Assembly (NCBI GenBank): GCA_008375315.1
Contig: CP032507.1
Location: forward strand, 1,663,001 to 1,727,000
Direction of reading: 5' to 3'
Source: Ectothiorhodospiraceae bacterium BW-2
GTDB taxonomy: Bacteria; Pseudomonadota; Gammaproteobacteria; Thiohalomonadales; Thiohalomonadaceae
DNA length: 64,000 nucleotides
How positions within the stretch are numbered: the stretch's first letter is position 1; every line of letters begins with the position of its first letter. The notes beneath the pieces were generated by a model that was not told where the DNA came from, searched no databases, and saw nothing but the letters and a program-made list of their open reading frames with translations. Positions 38,986-57,901 of this stretch are shown piece after piece. Both the position numbers and the translations under genes were made by a program.

Positions 38986-38998
38986 CTCCGCTTCTCCC

Positions 38999-39027
38999 TT
39001 GTTTCTCACTCTAGGTTATGGCACAAT
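38999..39027 (+). promoter_or_regulatory. Candidate promoter of the NRPS-PKS gene array
   Basis: TTGTTT (38999-39004), a 17-bp spacer and CACAAT (39022-39027), about 90 bases before the megasynthase start in the 136-bp fis-NRPS gap. The -35 is good and the -10 moderate (4 of 6). No terminator for dusB-fis is visible here, so read-through is also possible. Confidence 0.35.
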
Positions 39028-39121
39028 GCCGCGCCATTAAGGGTACGGTCGTGTTGAGATGAGCGAATTGCCTGGAAACCGCTATGAGCCATTTTGATTT
39101 AGGTTTTTAGGAGCAGTGACA

Positions 39122-42100
39122 TTGCGTCAAGAGATAAGCGATACGAGGTGGAGCCTCTCCAGCCATGAGAGCTCCGTGCCCCGCATTTTTGAGTATATTG
39201 CGCAGAGATTACCCCAGCAGACGGCGGTTTTTCACGATAACCAACCCCTTAGCTACGATGGGCTCAATCGCCAAGCGAACCGTTTAGCTCACTATCTCAT
39301 CGCAACCGGTCTTCCCCCAGGTACCCCTATTGCGGTCAGTCTTGAAAAGTCACATCATGCGGTAGTCGCCTTTATGGCGGTGCTGAAGGCCGGTGCGACC
39401 TATCTGCCCTTAGATCCTGACTACCCGATTGACCGAATTAACTATATTCTTGATGATACATCAGCGCCCATCTTATTGATAAATAAACAAAAAGAGGCAG
39501 CGCTAGCGGCAGCTAAAACCCGTGTAATCGACTATGAGACCCTTGCGCCGGCGCTTCTATCGTATCCAGAGAGCAACCCGAGCCGTCCTGTCGGAGCCAC
39601 AGACTTCTCCTACATCATCTATACCTCCGGCACTACCGGTCAACCTAAGGGTATCCGCCTGACTCAGCAAACTTTGGTAAATCTCATCGCCTTTCAAACG
39701 CGCGATAGAGGCTCTAAACCCGACCTTCGAGTGAGCCAGTTTGCCAGTTTCAGTTTTGATGTCTCCCTCCAAGAGCTCTGCTACACCCTGACTAACGGCT
39801 ATACGCTCTATGTTGTTCCGTTAGCGGTAAGACGCTCTACGATGGAGTATGCCCACTATCTCATCGGCCACCGTATCACCTCGCTGTTTATTACCACCAG
39901 TATGCTGGAGCTACTAGCAGAGGCGATGTTGGCTATACAGCCAGAGGCGCTCGCCTTAAGCGAAATATTTGTCTCTGGTGAGACCCTTAAAATTACCCCC
40001 ACCATTCGCCGCCTCTTTTTACGCTACCCCGATATCACCCTTATCAATCAGTATGGCCCCTCTGAGTCTCATGTCATGCTGAGTTATACCCTGCCAAAGG
40101 GGGCGGAGAGTTGGGAAGATTACCCCCCTTTAGGCTGCGCTATCCCCCATTTTGAGACCTATGTTCTCAACGACGAGCGAAAACCACTCTCGGTCAATGA
40201 GATCGGCGAACTCTACATTAGCGGCATCGGCTTAAGCGCCGGCTATATCAATCGCCCTGAACTGACTGCCGAAAAATTTGGCCCCAACCCCTTCAACAGC
40301 GCACCGGGTTATGAGCGCCTCTATCAGACCGGTGATTTAGTCCAGTGGCGTAGTGACGGCTATCTACAACACATGGGTCGGCGTGACTTTCAGGTCAAAA
40401 TTCGCGGCTTTAGAATTGAGTTACAGGAGATAGAGAGCGTTATTGACGCTTATGACGGCGTTAAGCAGGCGGTGGTGTTGGTTAAAGATCGCAATCACGA
40501 CCTCGATCAGCTCAACCACTCATCAATCACTCTCTATCTTGTCGGCTACTTTGTGGCCGATACGAAGCTCAATAAAGACGATCTATTCGCCTTACTGCAA
40601 AGCAAGCTGCCCGACTATATGGTGCCTAATTTTTTAGTTCAGGTTGATCAAATCCCCCTAACCCATAATCTTAAAGTTGATCGAAAAAAGCTACTTGCGA
40701 TCGATGAGAACGAACCCTCGCAACCGGGCGCAACCTCGACTGCCATCACCGATCCGCAACATCGTACCATTGCCGCGATTTGGAGTCGGCTACTTAATCT
40801 ACCTCTTGAAAAGCTCGATAGCCACAGCAGCTTCTTCCACTTTGGCGGCAACAGTCTGCTAACGATGCGGTTAGCTAATGAACTTGCAGCCACTTTCCAG
40901 ACCCGTATTCCTATTGCGCTCATCTATGAACACAACAGCATTGCTGCTTTAGCAACAGCGATTGACGCTATCTCGGAGGCACCGCCCCCCATTGCCGCTA
41001 TCGATAGGCACGAAAAGGGTGATAGACCGCGCCTCTCTTTTGCCCAAGAGCGGCTATGGTTTATTGAGAAGTATGAAGAGGGTACCGCACTCTATAACAT
41101 TCCGATTATCTACACCCTAAGGGCAGATGTCGGGCTCGCGCCCCTAGAACAGGCGATTAAAAAGATTATCTCACGCCATGAGAGTTTAAGAACACTTATT
41201 CGGCAGGATCGGGCCGGTGAGAGCTATCAACAGGTGGTTACTGGTGATCTACTCACGATCGAAAAGGTGCAGCTCGACTCTCTTACCGACTTAAACCAAG
41301 CACTAAAACACGACGCGCACTATCTCTTTAATCTACAGCGGGAGCTACCCATACGGCTTAAATTTTATGCCGTAACCGAGACTAAAGAGCACTATCTGCT
41401 GCTGCTGTTTCACCACATTGCGACCGACGGCTGGTCGATTGAGCTCTTTATGCAGGAGCTGCTCATCGCCTACCGCCACTATAGCGATCCCTCTTCTCCA
41501 ACCGATGAGCCCAACCTACCCGCTCTGCCGCTGCAGTATAGCGATTTTGCCTTATGGCAACGCCACTACCTAAGCGGGCCACTGTTAGAGAAGCAGCTCG
41601 ACTTTTGGCGTCAACGACTCAACGATTTTGAGACGCTTAACCTCATTACCGACGCCCCCCGTCCCGAACGGGTCGATTACCGTGGCGCAGCGCTCGGTTT
41701 TGAGCTCGACCAGGCTCGTAGTGATGCCTTAAGAGATCGCGCCAAGGCGCTAGAGGTGAGCCTCTACAGCCTACTAATGGCCGCTTTTCTATTAATGCTA
41801 AGGCTTTTTAGCCACCAAAAAGATATCGTCATCGGTCTGCCGATCTCGAACCGCCACTATCACGAAATAGAGAATTTAATCGGCTTCTTCGTTAATAGCC
41901 TGCCGTTACGGCTAGTTATCGACGATAACAGCAGCAGCACTGACTATATTCAAACTGTTCACCGAGAGCTATTAGCCCTGCAACTGCATCAAGATATTCC
42001 GTTTGAGTATCTGATTAAATCGCTCAATATCGCCAAAGATTCGAGTCGCCACCCGCTATTTCAAGTGATGTTTGGCTTGCAAAACTTTGCCGATAACCTA

Positions 42101-45100
42101 TTCGGTCTCTCCTCTGAGCCTAAGAGCGACGACAAAGATCCCCCTCTAGTACCGTACAGAGGCTCCGTTCCACTCTACGATAGCGCCAAGTTTGATTTAA
42201 CTGTTTTTGTTAACGATAGCGGTGCTAACCTTTCGGTAATCTTTAATTACGCCACCGCGCTGTTTACACCGGCGACCATTAACAGCTATATGGACTCTTT
42301 TGAACAGCTGTTAACCCGTTTCGCAGCGCCTGTCTGTTGCACTCTTGCCACCTTAGACTATATTACCCCAGAGCAGCTTCAGCAGATAACGGTCGATTGG
42401 AACCGTGGTGCGCGTGTTACCCCCTTTCGGCAAACGGTTGACCACCTCTTCACCGAACAGGTCAAACAGCAGGGCGATCGCATCGCCCTCTGCTATCAAC
42501 ACCACACGCTCACCTACCAACAGCTCGATAGCTATGCCAATCAGTTAGCTAACTACCTACAACAGCAGCATCACATCGGCGCGAATGATCGGGTGGCGCT
42601 ATTTCTCCACCCTAGTCAAGCGCTTTACATCGCCATTTGGGCGATCTTAAAGGCAGGTGCCGCCTATGTCCCTATCGATTTACGCTATCCTGAAGATCGT
42701 ATCGCCTATATTTTAGCCGATACTGGTGCCACTTTAGTGCTGGTCGATCAGCGCTCGCGCGAGCAGCTCGACTCTATTGATGATGGCATAACCCGACTTA
42801 CCCTTGATGCGCCTGAGGTAGAACAGGCCTATCGCCAAGCCCCCTCTAGCACGCCGACGCCACACCACTCCCCCGATAGCCTAGCCTATATTATCTACAC
42901 CTCCGGCACCACCGGCCAACCTAAAGGGGTGATGGTTCCCCATCGAAGCGTTGTTGCCTTCTGTCAAGCGGATAACTACTGCCAAATTGATCAACACAAC
43001 AGCGTGTTAGGTTACTCTAGCCACGCCTTTGATGGCAGCGTGTTCGATATTTTTGTCACCCTCACCCGGGGTGCAAAACTGGTTGCCATTCATAGCGATA
43101 CCCTGCTCGACGCCGCCGCGCTAACCGAGGTGATCTCGCAACACCACATCGATACCCTATTTATCACCTCGGCACTCTTTGTCAACTATGCTGAACTCAA
43201 ACAGCGCAACCCACTGCTGGCCATTAAAAATATCCTCTTTGGGGGGGAGAAGGTCAGTCCCGACAAAATTAGCGACTTTCTTAACTATAGTCGCCACACC
43301 AACCTCATTCATGTCTATGGCCCAACCGAAACGATTGTCTTTGCCACCTTTGCCCCGTTAACTCTCGATAATGTCGCGGCGCTACCTATCGGTAAACCGC
43401 TCGCTGATAAAAAACTCTATCTCCTCAACGAACAGTTGCAGCCTCTACCCGCAGGTGCCGTTGGTGAACTCTATATCTCTGGGCTCAGTCTAGCGCAGGG
43501 CTACCTGAATCAGGCCAGTTTTACCCAAGATAAATTTATTCCTAATCCGTTTCAAACGGCTGAAGAGGCCGCGCAGGGGCTATATGCCACCCTCTATAAA
43601 ACTGGCGATCTAGTCCGCTATCTGCCCAATGGTGATATTCAATATATTGCCCGCAACGACTCCCAAGTCAAAATTCGAGGCTATCGCATCGAATTAGAGG
43701 AGATTGAGCAGGTATTAAACAGCTATCCCGGCGTAGAGCAGGTGGTGGTGCTCGCTAAAGGCAGCTCTGGTGCCAAACAGCTAGTTGCCTACCTGCAACT
43801 CAACCAGACTCGGCCAACCGAACCGCCCCTTGATGGAGCAGAGCTGCTCGCCTTTGCCCAACAGCGACTGGCCGAATATATGGTGCCACGCCAGTTTGCC
43901 GTGGTCGATAAGATTCCGGTGAACACCAATGGTAAAATCGATAAAAAACGGCTCTTGGATCTAGCGACCGAACCGCTCACCCGCCCCAAAACCTTCATCG
44001 CACCAAAGAGCCACTACGAGACGCTCCTCTCTAGCCTCTGGCAACGCATCCTATCGCAGCCACAGATTAGCATCAGCGATAATTTTTTTGATCTCGGTGG
44101 TAACTCCATCCTACTCGCGCAGATGCACGCTGCGCTACCCGATGAGATAAGAGCAAAAATAAAGATTATCGATCTATTCAAATATCCGACTATTGCCGCC
44201 ATTAGCCAATTTCTAACCGAGCCGAAGCCAACCCCCCCCCCTCCTAGCGCCACGACACAAACGCATCAACGGGATGATATTGCCATTATCGGCATGGCGG
44301 GGCGCTTTCCTGGCGCTGACTCGATTGAAGAGCTATGGCAAAATTTAATCGCCGGCAGAGAGTCGATCACCTTCTATACCAAAGAGGAGCTACTCGCGGC
44401 GGGCGTTGACGCAACACTCATCAACCACCCTAACTATGTCGCAGCCCAAGGGGTATTGAGCGATATTCAACACTTTGATGCCGATTTTTTCGGCTATTCA
44501 CCGCGTGAAGCGACTCTTATCGATCCACAACAGCGGCTCTTTCTAGCCTGCGCCTACCACGCCCTCGAAGCGGCCGGTTACGACAATCCCGATCAACAGC
44601 GTGGCCCTATCGCCCTCTATGCGGCTGTGGGGCGCAATCGCTATCTAGCCGACCATTTGAGTGAGCCGGGGGCTGACGATCCAGTCGGTCAATACCAGCT
44701 ACTATTAGGCAACGGTGCCGACTTTCTAGCGACTCGTGTCGCCTACAAACTCAACTTAACTGGCCCGGCGATCACCGTCCAAACCGCCTGCTCTAGCTCC
44801 TTGGTGGCGGTACATCAGGCCTGCCTTGCGCTCAAAGCGGGCGATTGTGATCTTGCCATGGCAGGAGGGGTCTCGCTACAGGCGGTCGATAAACAGGGCT
44901 ATCTCTATGAAGCCGATATGATTGGCAGCTCAGATGGCCACTGTCGCGCCTTTGACGCGGCGGCGGACGGCACCCTTGGTGGTCAAGGGGTAGCGGTTGT
45001 GGTATTAAAGCGGCTCTCTCAGGCGTTAGCCGATAGCGATCCTATCTTAGCCGTCATTAAAGGGCACGCCATCAATAATGACGGCAGTACCAAAATCGGC

Positions 45101-48025
45101 TTTACCGCACCTAGCATTCAGGGACAGGCCGAGGTTATTCGCAGCGCCATCGCCCGAGCCGGCATTGCCCCCGAAACCCTCTCCTATATCGAAGCGCACG
45201 GTACCGGCACCAAATTGGGCGATCCTATCGAAATCGAGGCACTAAAAACCGCCTTTGCCGCCGATCCAAGCCAAGGGCAGTTCTGCGCCATCGGCTCTCT
45301 GAAACCCAATATCGGCCATCTCGATGCCGCATCGGGGGTGGCAGGCTTGATTAAAGCGACCCTCTCGCTACACCACAAGGCGCTAGCCCCCACGATCCAC
45401 TACCAGCAGAGTAATGAGAAGATCGACTTCTCCACCACCCCCTTCTATGTCTCAACCGACTATCGCCCATGGCCCGAGGGGGCTACCCCCAGAAGAGCCG
45501 GAGTCAGCGCCTTTGGCCTAGGGGGAACCAATGCCCATGTCGTACTAGAAGAGAGCCCGTCCCCCCTCAATCCACCGCCGCCACCGCCGCTAGAACGAGA
45601 CTATCCAATCTGGTTCTCGGCCCACACTCCCAGCGCACTCGCGGCGCGACAGCGGCAGCTGCTGGCTTATTTAACCGAGCATCCCGACACTGTCATACGC
45701 GATTTTAGCTACACCCTACAGCTAAAACGGCGCCACTTTAAGTTTGCCAGCTATGTTGTCGCCCAAACAGTGGATAGCGCCATCACAGCGCTTAAAGCGA
45801 CCGACTCACGCCCGCCAATTGAGTGCCGCACGAGCCCCCCTCGCGCCATTGTCTTTATGTTCCCAGGACAGGGATCGCAATATGTCGCCATGGGGGCGGC
45901 GCTCTATCGGCAACAGCCCTATTTTCGTCAACAAGTTGATCACTGTTTTGAATTAATACCGGCTCACACTACCGATTTTACCTTAGAGGATATCTTTACT
46001 AACGCCGAAAGGCTCCACCAAACCGCCTATACCCAGCCGGCGCTCTTTATCATTTCGTATGCCCTTGCCCGATATCTTATCCATATTGGCGTTAAACCTA
46101 ATGCGATGATTGGGCACAGTATTGGCGAATATGTCGCCGCCACCCTTAGCGGCCTCTTTACCCTAAAAGATGCCCTCTATTTAGTCACCCAACGCGCAAG
46201 GCTACTACAGCGCCTGCCCCAGGGAGCGATGTTGTCGATCCTGCTCCCTAGTGACGATCTCCCCCGTGATGCGCTAGCGTTGGCTCAACGACTCGATCTC
46301 GACATCGCAGCCATCAATGACCGCCAAAGTCTGGTGCTCTCAGGCTCCCTAGCTCAAATCGACAGCGCCATCGGCTACCTCAACGAAAACGATATTAGCT
46401 ATAAACGACTACCGGTCACCCGTGCGTTTCACTCGCGAATGGTAGAGGCGATCCTGCCTGACTTTGAACAGGTTTTAAGCCAAATCGATCTAGCGACAGC
46501 GACCCTTCCCTTTATCTCCAACCTAAGCGGCACACTCCATACGCCACAGACACTTAGCTCACGCCACTACTGGATCGATCATCTGCGCCACACGGTTAAG
46601 TTTGCCGACGGTCTCACCCACCTATTAACGATGCTAGGGGAGAGCGAGAGCCTCTTTTTAGAGGTCGGCGCAGGAGAGGTACTCACCCGTTCGGGGAGGC
46701 GAACACACCCCAACGCCACCCTGCTAGCAACCCTCGGCAGCGATAACAACCGGCTACACCCCCTACTAGAGACGCTACTACAGCTACAGGCTGGGGGGGT
46801 TAAACTTAACTGGGAGGCCTACTATCCCGACGGTGCCGCTTATCTACCCCTACCTAGCTACCCCTTTGAGAGCAAACCGTTTTGGATTACCAAACAGGTG
46901 TCAGCGTCCACGATACCCGATTCGGAACCGAGCGCCCCGACCGCACCACCAGCGCCGGAGGCCTCTGCTAGCTCCCCCCTCAAAGAGCAGCTTCGATCGA
47001 TTTGGCGCGACTATCTTGGCCATGCCACGATTGGCGATGATGATAACTTTTTCGATCTAGGGGGCGATTCACTACTAGCGATACGAATTGTTAGCCGTAT
47101 TAAGAGCAGACTAGCGTGTGAGCTGGCGCTAGCCGATCTCTTCGATAAACCGACGCTTCGTGCCCTAGCGCAACACATTGAACCGCAGTGGGCTAGCCAG
47201 AGAGCGATAAGCAACGACTCATCCCCCCTAGTGCAGCTACAGCAGGCAGCAGATAGCGATAAAACGCTCTTTTTAATTCACGCCGCAGATGGCTACCTGT
47301 TGAGTTATCGCCCCTTGATTGAGGCGCTTGGTGCTAGCTATACCCTCTATGGCCTACAGAACCCCTATCTGGAGCAGACCAACCCTAAACTCGCCCCCCT
47401 TAACTGTATCGAAACGATTGCCACCGCCTACCGTGAGGCGATAGAGAGGGTCGCCCCTGACGGAAAGTATCATCTCATCGGTTTCTCTTTAGGTGGCCTT
47501 ATCGCCTATGAGATAGCGCAGCAGTTGACTCGAAGCGGAAAAAGTGTCGCGCTCTTGACTCTAATTGATGTTATCAGACCCGACCACCCCTTTGCCAATA
47601 CCCAGAGCTGTGATGCGATCTTATTAGATATTGTGCAGCTCTTGAGCCGCAAGGCGATCTCCTTTGAGCAATTTGCCCCCCTATCCGCTAATGAGCGGGC
47701 CGCCCTTATCGTCGAAACGATTGGGCTTGAGGGGTTAAATCATGACCGAAAAGTAGCGATTTATAACCAAATGAGACACTACAGCGAGGCGATTGCCGCC
47801 TATCAAACCGCGCCCTATCGCGGAAAAGTGCTCTTTTTTAATGCCCAGCAGCGCTTTGCAGGTTACGAACAGTTCGCCCTTGATGAGACTTGGCGCGACA
47901 GCATCGAACCTGAACTCGCTGTGTACGATATACCCGGCGATCATCTTTCCATGCTCACCCCTCCTCATGTTGCCGATATCGTGCACCACTTTGAATACCA
48001 CTATCGCCTTGCTAATCCCAAGTAA
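39122..48025 (+). CDS. Hybrid NRPS-PKS megasynthase (A-T-C-A-T-KS-AT-T-TE)
   Basis: A protein of about 2967 aa that is a complete assembly line. In order: A1 (about 20-520; YTSGTTGQPKG near 165), T1 (GGNS near 575), C (about 635-1080; HHIATDGWS near 765), A2 (about 1105-1610), T2 (GGNS near 1660), KS (about 1720-2145; catalytic TACSSS Cys near 1890, EAHGTGT and KPNIGH histidines near 2026 and 2066), malonyl-type AT (GHSIGEY near 2335, RAFHS near 2435), T3 (GGDS near 2652) and TE (GFSLGG near 2790). There is no KR, DH, ER, MT or E domain. The A1 pocket code, aligned by eye to GrsA, is DVQFFSQVMK (proline-like DVQ); A2 gives DGFFLGVVFK (isoleucine-like). TTG 39122 is 8 nt after AGGAG; GTG 39116 is too close to it. 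Confidence 0.93.
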   Translation: MRQEISDTRWSLSSHESSVPRIFEYIAQRLPQQTAVFHDNQPLSYDGLNRQANRLAHYLIATGLPPGTPIAVSLEKSHHAVVAFMAVLKAGATYLPLDPDYPIDRINYILDDTSAPILLINKQKEAALAAAKTRVIDYETLAPALLSYPESNPSRPVGATDFSYIIYTSGTTGQPKGIRLTQQTLVNLIAFQTRDRGSKPDLRVSQFASFSFDVSLQELCYTLTNGYTLYVVPLAVRRSTMEYAHYLIGHRITSLFITTSMLELLAEAMLAIQPEALALSEIFVSGETLKITPTIRRLFLRYPDITLINQYGPSESHVMLSYTLPKGAESWEDYPPLGCAIPHFETYVLNDERKPLSVNEIGELYISGIGLSAGYINRPELTAEKFGPNPFNSAPGYERLYQTGDLVQWRSDGYLQHMGRRDFQVKIRGFRIELQEIESVIDAYDGVKQAVVLVKDRNHDLDQLNHSSITLYLVGYFVADTKLNKDDLFALLQSKLPDYMVPNFLVQVDQIPLTHNLKVDRKKLLAIDENEPSQPGATSTAITDPQHRTIAAIWSRLLNLPLEKLDSHSSFFHFGGNSLLTMRLANELAATFQTRIPIALIYEHNSIAALATAIDAISEAPPPIAAIDRHEKGDRPRLSFAQERLWFIEKYEEGTALYNIPIIYTLRADVGLAPLEQAIKKIISRHESLRTLIRQDRAGESYQQVVTGDLLTIEKVQLDSLTDLNQALKHDAHYLFNLQRELPIRLKFYAVTETKEHYLLLLFHHIATDGWSIELFMQELLIAYRHYSDPSSPTDEPNLPALPLQYSDFALWQRHYLSGPLLEKQLDFWRQRLNDFETLNLITDAPRPERVDYRGAALGFELDQARSDALRDRAKALEVSLYSLLMAAFLLMLRLFSHQKDIVIGLPISNRHYHEIENLIGFFVNSLPLRLVIDDNSSSTDYIQTVHRELLALQLHQDIPFEYLIKSLNIAKDSSRHPLFQVMFGLQNFADNLFGLSSEPKSDDKDPPLVPYRGSVPLYDSAKFDLTVFVNDSGANLSVIFNYATALFTPATINSYMDSFEQLLTRFAAPVCCTLATLDYITPEQLQQITVDWNRGARVTPFRQTVDHLFTEQVKQQGDRIALCYQHHTLTYQQLDSYANQLANYLQQQHHIGANDRVALFLHPSQALYIAIWAILKAGAAYVPIDLRYPEDRIAYILADTGATLVLVDQRSREQLDSIDDGITRLTLDAPEVEQAYRQAPSSTPTPHHSPDSLAYIIYTSGTTGQPKGVMVPHRSVVAFCQADNYCQIDQHNSVLGYSSHAFDGSVFDIFVTLTRGAKLVAIHSDTLLDAAALTEVISQHHIDTLFITSALFVNYAELKQRNPLLAIKNILFGGEKVSPDKISDFLNYSRHTNLIHVYGPTETIVFATFAPLTLDNVAALPIGKPLADKKLYLLNEQLQPLPAGAVGELYISGLSLAQGYLNQASFTQDKFIPNPFQTAEEAAQGLYATLYKTGDLVRYLPNGDIQYIARNDSQVKIRGYRIELEEIEQVLNSYPGVEQVVVLAKGSSGAKQLVAYLQLNQTRPTEPPLDGAELLAFAQQRLAEYMVPRQFAVVDKIPVNTNGKIDKKRLLDLATEPLTRPKTFIAPKSHYETLLSSLWQRILSQPQISISDNFFDLGGNSILLAQMHAALPDEIRAKIKIIDLFKYPTIAAISQFLTEPKPTPPPPSATTQTHQRDDIAIIGMAGRFPGADSIEELWQNLIAGRESITFYTKEELLAAGVDATLINHPNYVAAQGVLSDIQHFDADFFGYSPREATLIDPQQRLFLACAYHALEAAGYDNPDQQRGPIALYAAVGRNRYLADHLSEPGADDPVGQYQLLLGNGADFLATRVAYKLNLTGPAITVQTACSSSLVAVHQACLALKAGDCDLAMAGGVSLQAVDKQGYLYEADMIGSSDGHCRAFDAAADGTLGGQGVAVVVLKRLSQALADSDPILAVIKGHAINNDGSTKIGFTAPSIQGQAEVIRSAIARAGIAPETLSYIEAHGTGTKLGDPIEIEALKTAFAADPSQGQFCAIGSLKPNIGHLDAASGVAGLIKATLSLHHKALAPTIHYQQSNEKIDFSTTPFYVSTDYRPWPEGATPRRAGVSAFGLGGTNAHVVLEESPSPLNPPPPPPLERDYPIWFSAHTPSALAARQRQLLAYLTEHPDTVIRDFSYTLQLKRRHFKFASYVVAQTVDSAITALKATDSRPPIECRTSPPRAIVFMFPGQGSQYVAMGAALYRQQPYFRQQVDHCFELIPAHTTDFTLEDIFTNAERLHQTAYTQPALFIISYALARYLIHIGVKPNAMIGHSIGEYVAATLSGLFTLKDALYLVTQRARLLQRLPQGAMLSILLPSDDLPRDALALAQRLDLDIAAINDRQSLVLSGSLAQIDSAIGYLNENDISYKRLPVTRAFHSRMVEAILPDFEQVLSQIDLATATLPFISNLSGTLHTPQTLSSRHYWIDHLRHTVKFADGLTHLLTMLGESESLFLEVGAGEVLTRSGRRTHPNATLLATLGSDNNRLHPLLETLLQLQAGGVKLNWEAYYPDGAAYLPLPSYPFESKPFWITKQVSASTIPDSEPSAPTAPPAPEASASSPLKEQLRSIWRDYLGHATIGDDDNFFDLGGDSLLAIRIVSRIKSRLACELALADLFDKPTLRALAQHIEPQWASQRAISNDSSPLVQLQQAADSDKTLFLIHAADGYLLSYRPLIEALGASYTLYGLQNPYLEQTNPKLAPLNCIETIATAYREAIERVAPDGKYHLIGFSLGGLIAYEIAQQLTRSGKSVALLTLIDVIRPDHPFANTQSCDAILLDIVQLLSRKAISFEQFAPLSANERAALIVETIGLEGLNHDRKVAIYNQMRHYSEAIAAYQTAPYRGKVLFFNAQQRFAGYEQFALDETWRDSIEPELAVYDIPGDHLSMLTPPHVADIVHHFEYHYRLANPK

Positions 48026-48068
48026 CCGATAGTTTTAACCCTCTATTTACCTTTTGGAGAGCTGTTCT

Positions 48069-48512
48069 ATGCCAAGCTTTATTGATAGCGATATTGAATT
48101 TATTACCAACCTCTATAAATCATTTCATGACATAGTAGGCGGTAAAAACATTCCTGATTTCTACCAGGTGATTCATCCTGACGCAGAGATTAAGTTCAAT
48201 AATGAAACTTATGACTGTGATGAGTGTGTTAGCCTAATGAATGATTTCTGTGCAGCCACCCAATCAATGGAGGTGACAGTTGTCAAGCCAATTGAGTGCA
48301 TCAATGAAGCAGAGCGCACTTATGTGGCTCTCTCTAGTTGGGCCATTGAGTCGCTATCGGGAAGTGGCAAAGTCGATTGCCCGATGTTGGCGATTATCTC
48401 TATTAAAGATAACAAGATCATTCAAGCTAGAGAAGTCATTAATATGGGTGGCGGCTTAAATCGCTTCTTAATAGATGATATTACCGTTAAAAAAGAGGCG
48501 TTAGCGCGTTAA
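48069..48512 (+). CDS. NTF2/SnoaL-like protein 1 of the NRPS-PKS array
   Basis: A 147-aa protein with the look of an NTF2-like/SnoaL fold: an N-terminal helix (DIEFITNLYKSFHDIVGG), HPDAEIKFNNETYD, then strand-rich TYVALSSWAIESL and IKDNKIIQAREVINMGGG. Such folds serve as cyclases, isomerases or ligand binders. The ATG at 48069 has GGAGAG 8 nt upstream; a TTG at 48054 is less likely. It lies 43 bases after the megasynthase. The next gene is a paralogue (shared GGKNIPDF/GGNIPDF and FNN motifs). A role in processing the product is inferred from position only. Confidence 0.72.
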   Translation: MPSFIDSDIEFITNLYKSFHDIVGGKNIPDFYQVIHPDAEIKFNNETYDCDECVSLMNDFCAATQSMEVTVVKPIECINEAERTYVALSSWAIESLSGSGKVDCPMLAIISIKDNKIIQAREVINMGGGLNRFLIDDITVKKEALAR

Positions 48513-48578
48513 TATCCGCCTAAGCCAATTGTTTATATCTTACACTATTTCAAAGCGACAACGACCGGAGATAACCCG

Positions 48579-48989
48579 ATGATGAGCGAACTTGAATTTA
48601 TTAAATCCCTCTATCTACCCTACAATCAAGTCAAAGCAGGAGGGAATATTCCCGACTTCTCTGACACCATTGATGAAGCGGCTGAAATCACCTTTAATAA
48701 CTGGACGCATAACCGCCAGCAGACTTTAGATTTTATCGACGCTTTTTGTAAAAAGATGCAGTCGATTCAAGTGGAAATCGCCGAAGTTAGCTGTCTTAAT
48801 GAGGCGACCAGTACCTACGTTATCCTATCGAACTGGGATCTAGAGCTGATACAGAGCCCTGGCAACCACTCGATCTGTCCAATGATGGAGTTAATTACCC
48901 TCAAAGGGGGACGCATTATTAAAACAGCCGGCGTCATGCATGCTGTTGGGGAAGTGAGTCAACTCCTCGCCTCAGGGGATATCGACTAA
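48579..48989 (+). CDS. NTF2/SnoaL-like protein 2 of the NRPS-PKS array
   Basis: A 136-aa paralogue of the preceding gene, sharing the plan ELEFIKSLY...GGNIPDF...AEITFNNWTH...FIDAFCKKMQSIQVE...ATSTYVILSNWDLELI...CPMMELITLKGGRIIKTAGVM. The two differ widely outside these motifs, so the duplication is old or their tasks differ. Two adjacent ATGs (48579, 48582) could start it, with CCGGAG upstream. A heterodimer or two sequential isomerase/cyclase steps are possible; nothing in the sequence decides. Confidence 0.7.
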   Translation: MMSELEFIKSLYLPYNQVKAGGNIPDFSDTIDEAAEITFNNWTHNRQQTLDFIDAFCKKMQSIQVEIAEVSCLNEATSTYVILSNWDLELIQSPGNHSICPMMELITLKGGRIIKTAGVMHAVGEVSQLLASGDID

Positions 48990-49026
48990 TATCCCTCTGT
49001 CACAGCTAAAACGGGTAGAAGCTATC

Positions 49027-50322
49027 ATGGAATCAGAACTATTTGATGTTATCGTTATCGGTGCTGGTCTTGCGGGGCTAACAGCCGCAACGCGCTGCCA
49101 GCAAGCGGGGCTAAAAGTCGGACTGCTAGAGCAGTTGAATCGTGTAGGCGGTCTATGTGGCACCTACCAGCGCGAGGGGTATGAGTTTGTTATCGGCTGT
49201 AATGAGTTTGGTTCCAGTTTAGAGCGCGAAATGGTCGCGCTAGGGGTCGATATTAAATTTAAAGCCCCCAACACCCGCTTTACTTTCGAGTCGAAAAGCT
49301 ACCAATTTCCGCTGAAACCCCTTGCGCTAGCCGGTATGCTAAAACATACTTTTGATATCCAACGCTTTTTAAAAGCGTGCAAACAGCCCGAAAATAGCGC
49401 CCGATCCTTAGATGAGATTGTCAGCCAAACGGTCAAAAATCGCACCTTAGCCCAACTCATTCTCTCTTTTGCTTACCCCTCGGCGATTACCCCTGCTCGA
49501 CTCAGCGTAGCCAAATTTTTAGAGATGTTCTCTAAAGAGCTCAATTACGACTACCAAAACTCCCGTATTCCTATCGGTGGGCCACAACATTTAGCCGATC
49601 AGATCGCCGCCCGTTTTACCGCGATCGGTGGTCAGCTATGGTTAGAGAGGCGGGTCGAGGCGGTAGAGTATGCCGAGGGGATCCATAATGTGGCTACTAG
49701 TAACGGTAACTATCGTGCTAAACAGCTTATCTCTAGCGAAGCGAGGCAAGATCGCTTCCCTGACGGGGCGGTAGAGGGACTGTCACTCAACACGCTCCAT
49801 CTAGCACTCAAAAAGAGCTTCCCTTACCCACAAGGGATGCACACCCTCGCCTATTTTCCACCCGATATCACCGGCTGGATGAGTCAAATGGATCAGGGGC
49901 AGCTCCCCGATGCCTTCGGTTTTCACCTCTTTTGTAGCGATCTGCCACCTAAGGATGAGTACTATAGTGTCAACCTCTACTGCACCGCACCGCGTCACAT
50001 GGAGGATATGGCACCGGCAGCACAGCAACAGATGGAGTCGTTTATCCTTAACCATATCGAACGGCTACTACCGGGGGTTAACGATGCGATTCTCTACAAA
50101 ACATTTATCACCCCTGCCGATTTCTACCAACAGCACCATCTAAAGAGTCTCGTCACTCCCTATATTGTTGAACACAATATGACTAAACCCGATAGCTACG
50201 ATTCTGAGAGGGCGATTTACTATATCGGCAATAGCCTCTATCCACCGGGTGAGCACGCTTGTGGTGCCGTACTCTGTGCTAGCCAAGCTGCGACTCGTCT
50301 TATTGAGACGCAAGCTAGTTAA
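49027..50322 (+). CDS. FAD-dependent oxidoreductase (phytoene desaturase/amine oxidase-like)
   Basis: A 431-aa flavoprotein. The N-terminal dinucleotide-binding motif is VIVIGAGLAGLTAATRCQQAGLKVGLLEQLNRVGGLCGTY (GxGxxG near residues 12-17, then the GG doublet). A C-terminal FAD-binding segment follows (AIYYIGNSLYPPGEHACGAVLCASQAATRL). It resembles carotenoid-desaturase-like NAD(P)/FAD oxidoreductases of unknown substrate. In the array it may dehydrogenate the peptide or the polyketide-derived part of the product; this is inferred from context. Gaps to its neighbours are 37 bases on both sides. Confidence 0.82.
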   Translation: MESELFDVIVIGAGLAGLTAATRCQQAGLKVGLLEQLNRVGGLCGTYQREGYEFVIGCNEFGSSLEREMVALGVDIKFKAPNTRFTFESKSYQFPLKPLALAGMLKHTFDIQRFLKACKQPENSARSLDEIVSQTVKNRTLAQLILSFAYPSAITPARLSVAKFLEMFSKELNYDYQNSRIPIGGPQHLADQIAARFTAIGGQLWLERRVEAVEYAEGIHNVATSNGNYRAKQLISSEARQDRFPDGAVEGLSLNTLHLALKKSFPYPQGMHTLAYFPPDITGWMSQMDQGQLPDAFGFHLFCSDLPPKDEYYSVNLYCTAPRHMEDMAPAAQQQMESFILNHIERLLPGVNDAILYKTFITPADFYQQHHLKSLVTPYIVEHNMTKPDSYDSERAIYYIGNSLYPPGEHACGAVLCASQAATRLIETQAS

Positions 50323-50359
50323 GATAATTGAATGTAATTTGATATAAGTTAATCTGACG

Positions 50360-52447
50360 ATGATAGTTCACCTTGCCCTATTTGGTTATCTCTGCCTCTC
50401 CGGCTATCGCGCTATAGAGAAAAAGAGGGGAAGTAAGGAGGGCTCCCTTCTGAGTAGTGATAGCCTAAAAGAGCAGATAGCAGACAATGAGAAGGGATTT
50501 TATGATAAGCAGATGCTACAGATGTACGATAGTGCTAAAAACGATAGTGATGGCAATATCTCAACTAAAATAGCGCAAGATAACTTCGATGCTGTCAATA
50601 ATCGTGAGATAAAGAGCGCAGCTATTGCCTTAGCGCTAGCGGCGGCTACGCCACTCTCTCCCCTCTTCGCTATCGCCTCTCTCCCCTTTATTCTCTATGC
50701 TAGCAGGCGGGTCATTAAAGAGAGTTTTGATCTAGCCAAAAAGGGGCAGTTCCGTGTCGAGACCATTATTAGTACCATTATTATCGGCACGCTGCTGCTT
50801 GGCCAACTCTTTATCGCTAGCTTTGCCACGCTACTCTATAAGCTCTCACTTAAGCTCACCTCCAAGATTATTCATCAGTCCAAACAGCAGCTAACCGAAA
50901 CCCTGCTTCAGACCCCCGAGTCGGTCTGGATTTTAGTCGATGGCGCTGAAGTTAGTCTCCCTTTTAACGATATTGAGATCGGCCATATCGTAGTCGTTCA
51001 CGCTGGCGATACGGTACCGGTTGATGGCCTCATTGAGTCGGGTATGGCCACTATCGACCAACATATTCTCACCGGTGAGTCGATTCCGGTAGAAAAAACA
51101 GTCGGTGATGAGGTCTTTGCCATGACACTCATCCTCTCTGGCAAGCTACATATCAAAGTCAACTGCCGTACCTCTGAGAGTAATGCGGCTAAAATTACCC
51201 AGCTACTTAATCAGACCGCCGACTTTAAATCGGGGGTACAACTCCAGGCTGAAACACTATCGGGTAAACTGGTTAACCCCGTTATCGGCACTAGCCTTGT
51301 CGCTATGCCGCTGGTCGGCTTCGGTGGTGCTTTAGGTATTTTGGCCTGCCATCCGGGGAACTCACTGATCGGTATCGCCCCGATTACCACCCTTAAACAT
51401 ATCTCTGCCGCTTCGAAACAGGGGATATTGATTAAGGATGGCCGTACTCTAGAGCTACTAAAAAGTGTCGATACGGTGGTGTTTGATAAAACCGGCACCC
51501 TAACCGATGAGCAGCCCTATGTCGGGCAGATCCACTGCTTTACTGAGCTATCGCAAAACGAGGTACTACGACTAGCTGCAGCGGCCGAATTTAAGCAGAC
51601 CCACCCTTTAGCTAAGGCGATTTTAGCTGCGGCACGGCAGCGTGAGCTGACTTGGCCTGCCCCAAATGAGTGCGAATATCGCCTCGGTTACGGTCTCATT
51701 GTTGTCGTTGACGGTGTCACCGTACGACTAGGCAGCCGCCGCTTTATGGTTGCAGAGAGAGTCGCCATACCGCCAGAGTTAGCCCCGCTAGAGGAGCAGA
51801 GCCATACGGCAGGTACCAGTCTGGTTCTAGTCGCGGTGGCCGACCAGCTAGTGGCGGCGATTGAGCTACGCCCTTCGCTGCGTCCTGAAGCAAAGCGCGT
51901 TATAACCGAGCTAAAACGCCGTAAAACTGTGGCTCAGATCTATATTATCTCCGGCGATGGCGAGACTGCCACCCGCGAGCTGGCTAAAACATTAGGGGTT
52001 GATGGCTATTTCGCCGAAATATTGCCCCAAAACAAGGCCGCCATTATTCAACAGCTACAGCAGCAGGGGCGCAGTGTCTGCTTTGTCGGTGACGGCATTA
52101 ACGATGCCATTGCACTGAAACGGGCGCAAGTTTCGGTATCGCTAGCAGGAGCCTCTAAAATCGCGACCGACACTGCCCAAGTTGTACTACTCGATAGGGG
52201 GATTGAGCACCTAACCTCACTCTTTGAACTTGCCGATCACCTAAATAAAAAGATGGATCGTCTCTTTAAAATAATGTTAACGCCATCACTTATGGGTGCC
52301 TCTAGTGTCCTCTTTTTAGGTACTGGTGTTACCGCTGTGCTCTACCTCTGTAGTCTCGGCATGATAGCCTCTATTGGCTATGTACTGCTGCCGTTACCTA
52401 AACAGCTAACTCCACCTAAAAATAGAACACTACCCCAGCTTGATTAA
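50360..52447 (+). CDS. P1B-like P-type ATPase lacking the CPC metal motif
   Basis: A 695-aa P-type ATPase. Present are the actuator loop LTGESIPVEK, the phosphorylation site DKTGTLTDE (D376), the HP signature QTHPLAKAIL of P1B pumps, and the hinge VGDGINDAIALKRA. There is no N-terminal heavy-metal-binding domain; the first 80 residues hold a short hydrophobic start and a polar stretch. In the membrane helix where P1B pumps have CPC, this one reads ACHPGNSLIGIAP, so PGN replaces CPC with Cys-His just before. The ion is therefore unpredictable. Its place in the array suggests export, self-protection or metal supply linked to the product. Confidence 0.85.
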   Translation: MIVHLALFGYLCLSGYRAIEKKRGSKEGSLLSSDSLKEQIADNEKGFYDKQMLQMYDSAKNDSDGNISTKIAQDNFDAVNNREIKSAAIALALAAATPLSPLFAIASLPFILYASRRVIKESFDLAKKGQFRVETIISTIIIGTLLLGQLFIASFATLLYKLSLKLTSKIIHQSKQQLTETLLQTPESVWILVDGAEVSLPFNDIEIGHIVVVHAGDTVPVDGLIESGMATIDQHILTGESIPVEKTVGDEVFAMTLILSGKLHIKVNCRTSESNAAKITQLLNQTADFKSGVQLQAETLSGKLVNPVIGTSLVAMPLVGFGGALGILACHPGNSLIGIAPITTLKHISAASKQGILIKDGRTLELLKSVDTVVFDKTGTLTDEQPYVGQIHCFTELSQNEVLRLAAAAEFKQTHPLAKAILAAARQRELTWPAPNECEYRLGYGLIVVVDGVTVRLGSRRFMVAERVAIPPELAPLEEQSHTAGTSLVLVAVADQLVAAIELRPSLRPEAKRVITELKRRKTVAQIYIISGDGETATRELAKTLGVDGYFAEILPQNKAAIIQQLQQQGRSVCFVGDGINDAIALKRAQVSVSLAGASKIATDTAQVVLLDRGIEHLTSLFELADHLNKKMDRLFKIMLTPSLMGASSVLFLGTGVTAVLYLCSLGMIASIGYVLLPLPKQLTPPKNRTLPQLD

Positions 52448-52485
52448 AGCCTTTTTTATGCCACAACTTTTAGAGAAACTATTTT

Positions 52486-53334
52486 ATGTTTTCAAAATGC
52501 CTTGGAAAATTTCCACTCGATATAGACAACCTCTATGCCGATTTAGCCCAGCTACATGAATCAGACTATATTCCTGCCTATTCAGAATATACTATCGGTT
52601 CATGGCGTACCGCTATTTTAATGAATCAAGAGGGTGATTCGAGTAGCGGTGAAGTAATAGAGTATGCTGGCTCCGCTCAAGCGACACCTCTGGCTAAAAA
52701 ATTACCCCATATTATGCAGGTGCTTAGCGAGACTTTTAATATGGCGACAATTAAGTTAGCCCGTATTGCGACCATTAAAAAGTATGGTCTTATTCTGCCC
52801 CATATCGATTTCGTCACCTTCTCCAAACCGTGTAAACGGTATAATATCGCCCTTATCTCTAATGACAGATGTATTAGTATTGAGGAGCAGACCGCCTATA
52901 GTATGCGTTCGGGAGAAATTTGGGATTTAGATGCGACCCATCCCCATAGCGCCGCTAACTTCTCTGATGAAGATAGAGTGTCGCTAATTATCGATTTAGA
53001 GCCCATAGATAACGAAAAAGACTATTTTAACCATCCCGATAAGCTAGCTGCGGCAGAGCCGATCCGCTTTATCGAGCGTGAGCCTCTTCCTGCCGAACTC
53101 AAGGAGCACTACTTAGCGCTAGCGGCACTAATGACTCGCCATAACTACAGAGATATTTTGGCGATGGTAGCCAAACTCCCCTTCTTGTGGCAGATGGAGT
53201 TAACCGATGTTTTTGAGATTACACAGCAGATCTGTCATCGTTCCGGTGATAGGCTTTTAATCGATAATATCGCCAAAACTAAACATGCCTTTTTACACGA
53301 AAGAGCCACCGATCCTGTCTCTGGTATTCTGTAA
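52486..53334 (+). CDS. Fe(II)/2-oxoglutarate dioxygenase of the L-proline cis-4-hydroxylase type
   Basis: A 282-aa member of the aspartyl/asparaginyl beta-hydroxylase superfamily. The iron ligands are in LPHIDF (HxD, near residue 107) and THPHSA (distal His, near residue 158); the 2-oxoglutarate-binding Arg is in DRVSLIIDL. From memory, it lines up over its full length, including the C-terminal helical domain (NYRDILAMVAKLPF...ICHRSGDRLLID), with the rhizobial L-proline cis-4-hydroxylase. That enzyme acts on free proline. This fits the proline-like code of the first A domain and suggests supply of hydroxyproline to the megasynthase. The exact substrate is an inference. Confidence 0.8.
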   Translation: MFSKCLGKFPLDIDNLYADLAQLHESDYIPAYSEYTIGSWRTAILMNQEGDSSSGEVIEYAGSAQATPLAKKLPHIMQVLSETFNMATIKLARIATIKKYGLILPHIDFVTFSKPCKRYNIALISNDRCISIEEQTAYSMRSGEIWDLDATHPHSAANFSDEDRVSLIIDLEPIDNEKDYFNHPDKLAAAEPIRFIEREPLPAELKEHYLALAALMTRHNYRDILAMVAKLPFLWQMELTDVFEITQQICHRSGDRLLIDNIAKTKHAFLHERATDPVSGIL

Positions 53335-53366
53335 CATCCATTAGTATATTAACGGAGCTTTTAGCG

Positions 53367-54737
53367 ATGAGTGCTACTCAGTTAACTATTTTGGCGGCTA
53401 TTGTCAGCTATTTTGTCGCCATGATTATTATCGGTATTATGGCAAGCCGCCATCAGAGTCATAGTGGCTTTGTTATCGGCTCTCGTGATGTGGGCTATAT
53501 TCCAACTATCGGTTCACTCTCCTCTTCGTTTCGTGATGGCATGGGAGTTATCTTTTGGGTCGGTTTTGGTGCCTCAGTCGGTTATGGTGGGATATGGGTC
53601 TTTATCGGTGTTGTCGCAGCTCTGTTAGTCTATGCCTTTATCGGGCCGAGGGCACGACAGTTAGCCGCACAACAGGACTATATTACTATCGGTGAGATGA
53701 TTCGCGCCCGCTCCGGCAGCCTTACCGAACGCTTTAGTGCGGCAATTATTGTCTGCTTCGCCTTAATGGTGATTGCCATCCAGCTCCATGTTGCCGGCAA
53801 CCTCTTCTCAATGGTATTGGGGATCGCTCCTTGGATCGGGGTCTTCTCCGTTGCCATTGTCGTCGGCTTCTACCTCTTTTGGGGTGGCTATAGCACCGTC
53901 GTCAAGACCGATGCGGTACAATTTTTTATTATCTTATCGCTGCTATTTATGCCGCTCTTTTTAGAGCCGACAGAGGCGATGTTCCATTTCGATACTATTT
54001 GGGCATTAGAGACAGAGACGATTATCGCCTTTAATTTAATCGGCTTTTTCTATGTTTTAAGCTCTGCTGATACTTGGCAGCGGATCTTCTCGGCTCGAAA
54101 TACCCGCGTGATCTACTTCTCTTTTCCGCTATCGGGCGTCGCGCTGCTGATTATCACTTTAGGGCTTATCTTTCTTGGCATGCTCGCTAGACCCCATTTA
54201 GGTGAGGTGATCGATACCAATACAGTCTTTTATGAGATCTTTAAAGGCGACTATCTCTCTCCCCTCCTACAGGCCTATATTGCGGTGGTTGTGATGGCTA
54301 TCTGTATGTCAACACTCGATACAATGTGTTATCTCACCGCAGCCACCATCGCTAAAAACCACACTCCAGCACACCTAACTGCAACACGCGATAGCTATGT
54401 TAACTTTTCACAAAAGGTGATGCTTCTCACGCTTGTCGCCATGAGTTTAGTGACCCTCACCATTAGCGATCTGCTGCTATTTGCTTTTAGTGCGGCTAGC
54501 CTGCTCTTTATCTTATCTCCGCTCTATCTCTTTACGGTATTTAACCTCCCCAAAGTGCGTAACGATAAAACCGATCGGCTGATGACACTGGCTATCGCGA
54601 TGAGCGCAATCATCTATCTTTATATGTTCTCAGCCGGCCACTTTGAGCGAGCGATTTTAACCCTAGTTCCAGTGGCAATCTCAACGGTACTAACTAGTGT
54701 TGCGATCTATTTTGGTAATATAAATAATCAGGAGTAA
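53367..54737 (+). CDS. Sodium:solute symporter family protein
   Basis: A 456-aa SSS-family transporter with about 12-13 hydrophobic segments. The first helices (IVSYFVAMIIIGIMASRHQSHSGFVIGSRDVGYIPTIGSLSSSF) and GYSTVVKTDAVQFFIILSLL (the sodium-site region) are typical. Family members carry proline (PutP), pantothenate, sugars or other solutes. The neighbouring hydroxylase makes proline uptake attractive, but transport or export of the product cannot be excluded. It ends 9 bases before purH, and its last codons supply the purH ribosome binding site. Confidence 0.82.
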   Translation: MSATQLTILAAIVSYFVAMIIIGIMASRHQSHSGFVIGSRDVGYIPTIGSLSSSFRDGMGVIFWVGFGASVGYGGIWVFIGVVAALLVYAFIGPRARQLAAQQDYITIGEMIRARSGSLTERFSAAIIVCFALMVIAIQLHVAGNLFSMVLGIAPWIGVFSVAIVVGFYLFWGGYSTVVKTDAVQFFIILSLLFMPLFLEPTEAMFHFDTIWALETETIIAFNLIGFFYVLSSADTWQRIFSARNTRVIYFSFPLSGVALLIITLGLIFLGMLARPHLGEVIDTNTVFYEIFKGDYLSPLLQAYIAVVVMAICMSTLDTMCYLTAATIAKNHTPAHLTATRDSYVNFSQKVMLLTLVAMSLVTLTISDLLLFAFSAASLLFILSPLYLFTVFNLPKVRNDKTDRLMTLAIAMSAIIYLYMFSAGHFERAILTLVPVAISTVLTSVAIYFGNINNQE

Positions 54738-54746
54738 ACCGAATCT

Positions 54747-56312
54747 ATGCGAACCATCAAACGAGCCCTTGTTAGCGTCTCTGATAAGAGTGGTATTGTC
54801 GAATTTTGCCGTCAGTTACAGCAGCAGCAGGTGGAGATCCTCTCTACCGGAGGAACAGCTAAACTGCTAGCAGAGAGTGGCGTTAAAGTGGTCGAGGTCT
54901 CAGACTATACCGCCTTTCCAGAGATGATGGCAGGACGAGTCAAGACACTACACCCGAAAATTCATGGGGGTATTTTAGCTCGACGAGGAGTCGATGAGGC
55001 GATTGCCGCCGAGCACGGTATCGGTTTTATCGATCTAGTGGTGGTCAACCTCTATCCGTTTGAACAGACGGTCGCTAATCCTGACTGCACTCTGGCCGAT
55101 GCGATTGAGAATATCGATATTGGCGGTCCGACTATGCTCAGAGCGGCAGCGAAAAACCATGCCGATGTCACCGTAGTGGTCGATAGTGGTGACTATGAGC
55201 CGCTGCTGCAGGAGTTAGCTGAGCTAGGCGGTGTGAGTCGTGAGAGCCGCTATCGGCTAGCGGTTAAAACCTTTGAGCACACCGCAGCTTATGATGGGGC
55301 GATTGCTAACTATCTCGGTGCTCATCACTCTAGCGGCGAGGCTGAGACTTTTGGTTCGACCTTTACGATGCAGTTTCACAAAGTTCAGGCGATGCGCTAT
55401 GGTGAAAATCCGCACCAGCTCGGGGCCTTCTATCGTGAAGCCCACCCCGCTATCGGTACCATTGCCACCGCCGAACAGCGACAGGGTAAAGAGCTATCGT
55501 ATAACAATATTGCCGATACCGATGCGGCGCTAGAGTGCGTGAAACAGTTTGATAGCGCCCCGACCTGTGTGATTGTTAAACACGCTAACCCTTGCGGGGT
55601 CGCGACGGGTGCGACACTGCTAGAGGCATATCATCGTGCCTACGCTACCGATCCGGAGTCGGCCTTTGGCGGTATTATCGCCTTTAATGGCGAGCTTGAT
55701 GGTGAGACAGCGGCAGCGATTGTAGCGCGACAGTTTGTGGAGGTGATTATCGCTCCAACAGTGTCGCCGGCGGCGATCGAGGCGGTAGCGGGCAAAAAAA
55801 ATATTCGTCTGCTACAGTGTGGGCAGTGGAGTCGTGGCGTCTCGGACGGATTTGACTTTAAACGGGTCAATGGTGGTCTGCTGCTACAGCAGCGCGATAG
55901 TGGTATGGTAGCGGCGGCTGATTTAAAGCTGGTTACTCGGCGTCAACCCGACGAGGGCGAGCTGGCCGATCTGCTCTTCACTTGGCGAGTGGCTAAATTT
56001 GTCAAATCGAATGCGATTGTTTATGGCCATCATGGGCAGACGATTGGCGTCGGTGCAGGCCAGATGAGTCGGGTAAACTCAGCTCGAATCGCCGCGATTA
56101 AGGCCGAACAGGCTGGTTTAGAGGTGGCGGGGAGCGTGATGGCGTCAGATGCCTTCTTTCCGTTTCGTGACGGTATCGATAACGCCGCTGCTGCCGGAAT
56201 TCGAGCGGTGATTCAGCCAGGGGGTTCGATGCGCGATGAGGAGGTGATCGCCGCTGCTGATGAGCACGATATAGCGATGCTCTTTACCGGTATGCGCCAT
56301 TTCCGTCACTGA
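54747..56312 (+). CDS. purH: Bifunctional AICAR formyltransferase/IMP cyclohydrolase
   Basis: A 521-aa enzyme for the last two steps of IMP synthesis. The MGS-like IMP cyclohydrolase domain lies at the N-terminus ([48 protein letters not shown]). The AICAR transformylase domain follows ([30 protein letters not shown]-terminal [19 protein letters not shown]). It follows the symporter by 9 bases and may be partly expressed from the biosynthetic transcript. In relatives it usually follows fis directly; purD, often next, is absent here. Confidence 0.97.
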
Positions 56313-57316: not shown

Positions 57317-57320
57317 ATAG

Positions 57321-57899: not shown

Positions 57900-57901
57900 C
57901 C

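What the first reader, a model, noticed from the sequence alone, without database searches (positions are those of the whole stretch)
39122..54737. An NRPS-PKS biosynthetic cluster sits between fis and purH
In many gammaproteobacteria dusB-fis is followed directly by purH. Here seven same-strand genes with gaps of 32-66 bases occupy that junction: a one-protein NRPS-PKS, two NTF2-like proteins, an FAD oxidoreductase, a P-type ATPase, a proline-hydroxylase-like dioxygenase and a sodium symporter. I know of no described cluster with this set. The close spacing down to purH (9 bases) suggests that purine synthesis may share its transcript.
Basis: partly seen in the sequence, partly recalled or inferred. 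Interest (0 to 1): 0.85.

Follow-up and report, generated by a model that had tools for sequence, protein, structure and literature searches.

The report
Peptide-polyketide gene cluster with odd pump
A bacterial genome carries an apparently undescribed gene cluster, probably for a small proline-containing peptide-polyketide, wedged into a conserved housekeeping spot, and one of its genes belongs to a family of pumps that look like metal pumps but lack the usual metal-gripping site and often sit beside small-molecule pathway genes.

Summary
Seven same-strand genes (39116-54737) lie between fis and purH. The first encodes one A-T-C-A-T-KS-AT-T-TE megasynthase (2969 aa) with all searched catalytic motifs. 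In relatives fis precedes purH directly (25 of 29 loci; 24 with a 35-227 bp gap), so this looks like a lineage-specific insertion. purH's likely ribosome site lies in the last codons of the symporter gene, so purH probably depends on the cluster transcript (inferred). Hand-read codes suggest proline, then isoleucine, then malonate. The FAD gene had no match (E 1e-20) in 368 other genomes of the class.

The surprise is the "heavy-metal" P-type ATPase. It belongs to a clade with a P-type core but no CPx metal motif (0 of 55 in the set read). In another family of the same class 33 of 42 genomes have it, 29 of them in several copies. Its operon-linked neighbours there are often biosynthetic: methyltransferases in 11 of 36; among 46 control genes no methyltransferase family reached two members. 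NRPS/PKS neighbours are enriched in the first sample (post hoc) but only weakly in the second (4 of 40 against 1 of 40). Best reading: a pump for the pathway's product or an intermediate; cargo untested.

The parts
37748..38985 (+). dusB and fis (overlapping by 4 bp), the left flank
   Evidence: ORFs; same pair upstream of purH in relatives
38986..39115 (+). 130-bp gap; ends in TTTTTAGGAGCA before the NRPS start, similar by eye to purH leaders of some relatives (e.g. ATCTTTTTGGGGAACTGCA in L032), so it may be the old purH leader
   Evidence: sequence; similarity judged by eye
39116..48025 (+). NRPS-PKS megasynthase, 2969 aa, A-T-C-A-T-KS-AT-T-TE; no KR/DH/ER or second condensation-type domain in Pfam
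   Evidence: Pfam; motifs HHIATDG, two A3, three T, TACSSSL, EAHGTGT, NIGH, GHSIGEY, RAFHS, GFSLGG
48054..48512 (+). NTF2/SnoaL-like protein 1
   Evidence: no family hit; fold match of a low-confidence model
48579..48989 (+). NTF2/SnoaL-like protein 2, paralogue of protein 1
   Evidence: 36% identity over 129 columns
49027..50322 (+). FAD oxidoreductase of the amine oxidase / phytoene desaturase superfamily
   Evidence: PF01593 above cut-off; with solved structures mainly the N-terminal Rossmann part aligns
50360..52447 (+). P-type ATPase of a CPx-less clade (M4 reads ACHPGNS where CPC sits in P1B pumps)
52486..53334 (+). Fe(II)/2-oxoglutarate dioxygenase like L-proline cis-4-hydroxylase; H-x-D and distal H aligned
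   Evidence: 4p7w E 1.2e-41, 1e5r E 3.2e-31
53367..54737 (+). sodium:solute symporter family protein (weak resemblance to PutP/PanF)
   Evidence: PF00474 35.2 bits, cut-off 22.8; TIGR02121 61.8 bits, cut-off 515.5
54747..56312 (+). purH, the only match in the genome; likely Shine-Dalgarno AGGAG lies in the symporter's last codons

Best explanation
This is a seven-gene biosynthetic operon that inserted between fis and purH. Shown: gene content and order, assembly-line motifs, the empty junction in most relatives read, ATPase family membership. Inferred: the dioxygenase hydroxylates proline (free or carrier-bound); module 1 (A-T) loads a proline-type residue; module 2 (C-A-T) adds an isoleucine-type residue; the KS-AT-T module adds one malonyl unit without reducing it, giving an aminoacyl-aminoacyl-beta-keto thioester; the TE releases it, plausibly by cyclisation to a tetramate or pyrrolopyrazinone; the FAD enzyme oxidises it and the NTF2 pair isomerises, cyclises or dehydrates it. 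The symporter imports a precursor such as proline or moves the product. The CPx-less P-type ATPase spends ATP to move the product or an intermediate, not a heavy metal. purH is co-transcribed, so the operon is probably expressed during growth.
For: Domains and motifs. A1 residues read DVQFFSQVMK and A2 DGFFLGVVFK, by hand with the alignments as a check; the numbering and the resemblance to proline and isoleucine codes are recalled. Nearest solved relatives of the dioxygenase are proline hydroxylases. fis upstream of purH in 25 of 29 loci read. ATPase: core motifs kept, CPx absent; a branch with 100% local support holds the 76 CPx-less rows apart from two CPC ATPases and two other P-type ATPases; operon-linked neighbours in family f33 are often biosynthetic against controls, as are neighbours in a phylum sample. 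G+C of six insert genes is lower than that of 39 other window ORFs of 150 aa or more, P 0.0025.
Against: No chemistry, transcript or transport data. Specificity codes were read by hand and A1 is only a partial match. No orthologous cluster turned up in the sets searched, so there is no comparative support for the pathway. NRPS/PKS proximity of the ATPase family was weak in the second sample (4 of 40 against 1 of 40 control loci). Several operon-linked neighbours of the ATPases are not biosynthetic or have no Pfam hit. The G+C-skew difference was not significant (P 0.15). The FAD model failed (pLDDT 34.4).
Confidence: 0.55

Rival explanations
1. The product is a metallophore and the ATPase exports or imports a metal (or a metal-loaded complex) through an unusual non-CPx site.
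For: The ATPase passes the TIGR01525 heavy-metal subfamily cut-off (391 against 346.25 bits) and keeps the HP motif of P1B pumps. A heavy-metal P-type ATPase is listed in the lusichelin metallophore cluster (PMC12210259, one passage seen). The window's own site holds a Cys and a His (ACHPGNS).
Against: No fixed Cys/His pattern replaces CPC: the pattern search finds CPx in 0 of 55 family members and the site varies. Family neighbours scanned are mostly enzymes such as methyltransferases and PLP enzymes. No salicylate, hydroxamate or thiazoline machinery is seen among the seven genes.
Confidence: 0.2
2. The ATPase moves an ordinary ion (Ca, Mg, K, H) that the pathways need or that balances transport of the product.
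For: CtpE, of a formerly uncharacterised P-type ATPase family, is reported to be a calcium importer (PMC5615198, start of abstract seen).
Against: The site varies between subclades although the cytosolic core is well conserved, which is not expected of one conserved ion site; many copies per genome.
Confidence: 0.25
3. The operon is a decaying or chance assembly: an NRPS-PKS next to unrelated transporters and enzymes, with purH separately transcribed from a promoter inside the symporter gene.
For: No second genome with the set was found; a sigma-70-like match lies at 54700-54728, though such matches are at chance level (22 found, 19.5 expected).
Against: All seven frames and all searched megasynthase motifs are intact, same strand, short gaps.
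Confidence: 0.12

Closest known systems
NRPS-PKS hybrids of the type aminoacyl-malonyl-TE (tetramate or pyrrolizidine makers such as the pyreudione synthetase; recalled, not compared here)
   Same: amino acid modules followed by one non-reducing KS-AT-T and a terminal TE
   Different: starts with an A-T loading module instead of a fatty acyl C domain; accessory FAD, twin NTF2, P-type ATPase, symporter set
L-proline cis-4-hydroxylase (4p7w) and the proline hydroxylase 1e5r
   Same: near full-length alignment, H-x-D and distal H aligned
   Different: sequence distant; below the TIGR04531 cut-off (129 against 300 bits); substrate untested
P1B-type heavy-metal ATPases (4umv zinc ATPase, CopA)
   Same: motifs TGES, DKTGT, HP, GDGIND
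   Different: no CPx in M4, no HMA metal-binding domain reported by Pfam, separate clade
SnoaL/IdmH/TerC-like NTF2-fold proteins
   Same: predicted fold
   Different: no sequence match to a named family; model of low confidence
FUPA families of functionally uncharacterised P-type ATPases
   Same: P-type ATPases without a known cargo (passages on FUPA 24 seen in PMC3573892)
   Different: whether this clade equals a numbered FUPA family could not be tested; FUPA 24 is described there as about twice the usual length

Membership tests
NRPS-PKS hybrid biosynthetic gene cluster | A, C, T and KS, AT, T domains with catalytic motifs in one assembly line | tested here: met
NRPS-PKS hybrid biosynthetic gene cluster | release domain | tested here: met
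   TE with GFSLGG and a downstream GDH
NRPS-PKS hybrid biosynthetic gene cluster | makes a product | not testable with these tools
   needs metabolomics
P1B heavy-metal ATPase | P-type ATPase core motifs and HP motif | tested here: met
P1B heavy-metal ATPase | CPx-type metal site in transmembrane helix M4 | tested here: not met
   window reads ACHPGNS; pattern search 0 of 55 family members; two ATPases with CPC in the same alignment (L097 and a second ATPase of L084)
P1B heavy-metal ATPase | groups with CPx ATPases in a tree | tested here: not met
   branch of 76 CPx-less rows with 100% local support, FastTree only, few outside rows
L-proline hydroxylase | Asp_Arg_Hydrox fold with Pro_3_hydrox_C and iron ligands | tested here: met
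L-proline hydroxylase | activity on proline | not testable with these tools
   needs assay
NTF2/SnoaL-like cyclase | NTF2 cone fold | tested here: inconclusive
   pLDDT 58.6, Foldseek top hits NTF2/SnoaL
known cluster in MIBiG | same domain order and accessory set | not tested
   MIBiG/antiSMASH not available

The most novel reading that the evidence does not exclude
A clade of P-type ATPases related to heavy-metal pumps has lost the metal site and become a versatile set of ATP-driven transporters for small organic metabolites, each copy diversified at the cargo site and carried in the operon of the pathway it serves; the fis-purH NRPS-PKS cluster is one such pairing.
Probability: 0.38. Interest if true: 0.88.

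Novelty: new variant of a known kind. Interest (0 to 1): 0.62.

Why it matters
If the ATPase reading is right, P-type pumps, known mainly for ions, lipids and polyamines (recalled), would include a large bacterial group devoted to pathway products, and the gene would be a handle for finding unknown small-molecule pathways that lack NRPS or PKS genes. The wiring of a biosynthetic operon into the transcript of a purine-synthesis gene would also be an unusual way to keep a cluster expressed.

Tried and rejected
Identity of the strain: the magnetotactic strain BW-2 was a guess; its published length (4,103,727 bp, PMC6940282, whole text seen) does not equal this genome (4,074,140 bp), and 16S was not found in the held copy, so no name is claimed.

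Origin of the cluster: the FAD protein was searched in 369 class genomes (own only at E 1e-20), 42 genomes of family f33 (none at 1e-15; the tool warns that an empty answer shows nothing without a known positive), plasmids (none at 1e-15) and genome contigs (a pattern scan for close relatives; one hit over 42 residues at 43%). NTF2 protein 1 in 398 phylum genomes: the own two copies plus one marginal hit over residues 74-129 (E 0.006); plasmids none. No full-length match of the megasynthase among the other 55 relatives searched at E 1e-50. In plasmids 18 of 1147 matching records cover at least 80% of it in one place, all under 60% identity and several as separate NRPS and PKS genes; their accessory genes were not examined. 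The second large NRPS of the genome is not a copy of this cluster.

The AlphaFold model of the FAD protein failed (pLDDT 34.4) and was not searched. Two plasmid ATPase hits were looked at: Gloeothece lies by HMA2 and DUF5132 genes, Methylobacterium by no obvious biosynthetic gene; neither was pursued, nor was it tested whether they belong to the clade.

NRPS/PKS enrichment of the ATPase family: first sample 4 of 19 within 5 kb against 0.45 expected, P 0.0008; at 10 kb P 0.004, at 20 kb P 0.02, but the idea came from the same data. Second sample 4 of 40 against 1 of 40 control loci, the controls holding less sequence, 439 against 611 kb. So the NRPS link alone is not firmly established. The methyltransferase count in the second sample was also noticed in the data it is drawn from. 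The clustering of the NRPS-near label on the tree (8 changes, shuffled mean 11.4, 0-1 of 500 shuffles as low) partly reflects near-copies such as L112/L113. One row (a P-type ATPase with a PEGLP site in L087) was mislabelled and corrected. Not every family member has a perfect core: a second ATPase in L154 reads DKTSA at the phosphorylation motif, L096 reads DKSGT.

Full report
Observation. The seven genes are present as described, on the + strand, with short gaps. The first encodes a 2969-residue protein that Pfam reads as AMP-binding, carrier, Condensation, AMP-binding, carrier, ketosynthase, acyltransferase, carrier, thioesterase. The searched catalytic motifs are present: C domain HHIATDG, two A3 and two A5 motifs, three carrier motifs, KS TACSSSL/EAHGTGT/NIGH, AT GHSIGEY with AFHS (malonyl type by a recalled rule), TE GFSLGG. 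No reductive PKS domain was found in Pfam.

Junction. purH was found in 49 of 56 genomes searched; loci were returned for 30, one being the window's own. Of the other 29, fis lies upstream of purH in 25, at 35-227 bp in 24 and 1029 bp in one (a few purH starts are estimated); of the remaining four, one starts at a contig end (L046) and three have no fis in the stretch held (L037, L045, L056). Within the window's own family the count is 14 of 17. So a 15.6-kb insertion appears to have separated the pair in this lineage. The 130 bp after fis ends in a leader that resembles, by eye, purH leaders of some relatives. purH now starts 9 bp after the symporter stop, and the plausible ribosome site (AGGAG) overlaps the symporter's last codons. 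Terminator-like matches are at chance level in the region (17 found, 15.9 expected) and none lies in the SSS-purH gap. The genome has one purH match. Co-transcription is therefore likely but inferred. Six of the seven insert genes (the 136-aa one was below the length limit) have lower G+C than 39 other window ORFs of 150 aa or more (P 0.0025), while G+C skew does not differ significantly (P 0.15).

Chemistry. Read by hand, with the alignments to linear gramicidin synthetase as a check, the specificity positions are DVQFFSQVMK (A1) and DGFFLGVVFK (A2). By recalled codes A1 is proline-like in part and A2 is close to isoleucine codes. The dioxygenase aligns over nearly its full length with L-proline cis-4-hydroxylase 4p7w (E 1.2e-41) and with 1e5r (E 3.2e-31). 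The twin small proteins are paralogues with a probable NTF2/SnoaL fold. The FAD protein has superfamily matches only.

Rarity. Searches for the FAD protein and the first NTF2 protein found no convincing orthologue outside this genome in the sets used. The megasynthase has no full-length match in the other 55 relatives searched.

The ATPase. It passes the cut-off of the general heavy-metal model TIGR01525. It keeps the cytosolic motifs but has ACHPGNS where P1B pumps have CPC. In 369 class genomes, ten including the own one have a match at E up to 1e-70 (at most three candidates scored per genome); of 21 places besides the query, 20 are 35-46% identical and lack CPx, and one (33%, L097) has CPC. 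With a profile of 13 members, 398 phylum genomes show a gap: 785-906 bits in six genomes and 410 bits for the next, a different P-type ATPase. In family f33, 33 of 42 genomes have it at E up to 1e-150, 29 of them two or more times, up to 20 matches in one assembly. The pattern search finds CPx in none of 55 members in the loci. In a FastTree tree the 76 CPx-less rows lie behind one branch with 100% local support, apart from two CPC ATPases and two other P-type ATPases. The window protein groups with L078, L142, L144 and L151; the first three read HP at the site, as the window does.

Neighbours. First sample: 4 of 19 loci (a tandem pair counted once, own window left out) lie within 5 kb of an NRPS C domain or modular PKS marker, 0.45 expected (post hoc). 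Phylum sample outside the class: of seven listed places, two overlap by 4 bp an A-methyltransferase-carrier-reductase gene, one lies two genes from an A-reductase gene, and two adjoin a carbamoyltransferase gene (Pfam for L110, by eye for L111); one (L115) has no obvious biosynthetic neighbour. Second sample, family f33: 40 places picked by hand down the list, mostly away from contig starts, one per contig save one contig with two, G032 and G177 left out, before their neighbours were seen; 4 of 40 lie near A/C/KS against 1 of 40 neighbouring-contig controls. Of 37 operon-linked neighbours (same strand, gap under 200 bp) in that sample, one was left out of the count because it is itself an ATPase of the family; another, a 167-aa ORF in L125, may be the broken-off start of one (by eye; one search shows no significant match). 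Of the 36, 11 carry a SAM methyltransferase domain; three carry an aminotransferase domain, two of these fused to a methyltransferase; others are a PLP decarboxylase, DapB, an adenylosuccinate synthetase type, an NAD synthase type, an epimerase, a thioesterase and a glyoxalase type. Against the reading, others are a TauE exporter, a histidine kinase, an amidase, Maf, a nucleoside hydrolase and MoaF-type proteins, and several have no Pfam hit (30 scanned singly; all 36 tallied). Of 46 random operon-linked control genes no methyltransferase family reached two members; families with one member are not all printed (25 of 72 shown). Homologous loci (L120/L141, L137/L146) are not independent. The second ATPase of L079 groups with L112/L113 from another class, all beside NRPS-type genes, which suggests that pump and pathway can travel together.

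Reading. A pump that keeps its motor, varies its cargo site between subclades, multiplies in genomes and often sits in operons with differing biosynthetic enzymes is best explained as a carrier of the pathway's own small molecules. Metal or ordinary-ion transport remains possible; CtpE shows that an uncharacterised P-type family can turn out to carry calcium (PMC5615198, abstract start seen). No paper describing this family appeared in the listings of searches of an open-access library; subscription papers and TCDB were not available.

Verdict. The cluster is real, apparently undescribed, and a new variant of a known kind; the pump family is the part worth following.

Noticed in passing
L009:7038-15554 (- strand; own genome, about 1.135-1.144 Mb): A second large NRPS (2838 aa) with an embedded sulfotransferase-like stretch (by eye) sits a few genes from tuf, secE, nusG and rplK-like genes (by eye), again a biosynthetic gene near housekeeping genes.
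   Followed up: no
L096:9150-14270 (own genome, about 3.70 Mb): Another CPx-less ATPase of the own genome lies in a same-strand run with an acyl-CoA dehydrogenase and an FkbH-like protein (by eye; Pfam gave only a weak phosphatase match), perhaps another unknown pathway.
   Followed up: partly
L081, L083, L152: EgtD-like histidine methyltransferase genes (Pfam-confirmed for L152, by eye for the other two) lie directly upstream of a CPx-less ATPase in three genomes.
   Followed up: partly
L086:5104-8858: Genes that look by eye like carboxynorspermidine decarboxylase and dehydrogenase precede a CPx-less ATPase.
   Followed up: no
window 56864-58714: purH is followed by a Uma2-like ORF and hypA/hypB-like ORFs (by eye); purD was not seen next to it.
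   Followed up: no
L112, L113 and L079: NRPS-type genes and the same ATPase subclade occur together in two different classes, suggesting joint transfer.
   Followed up: partly
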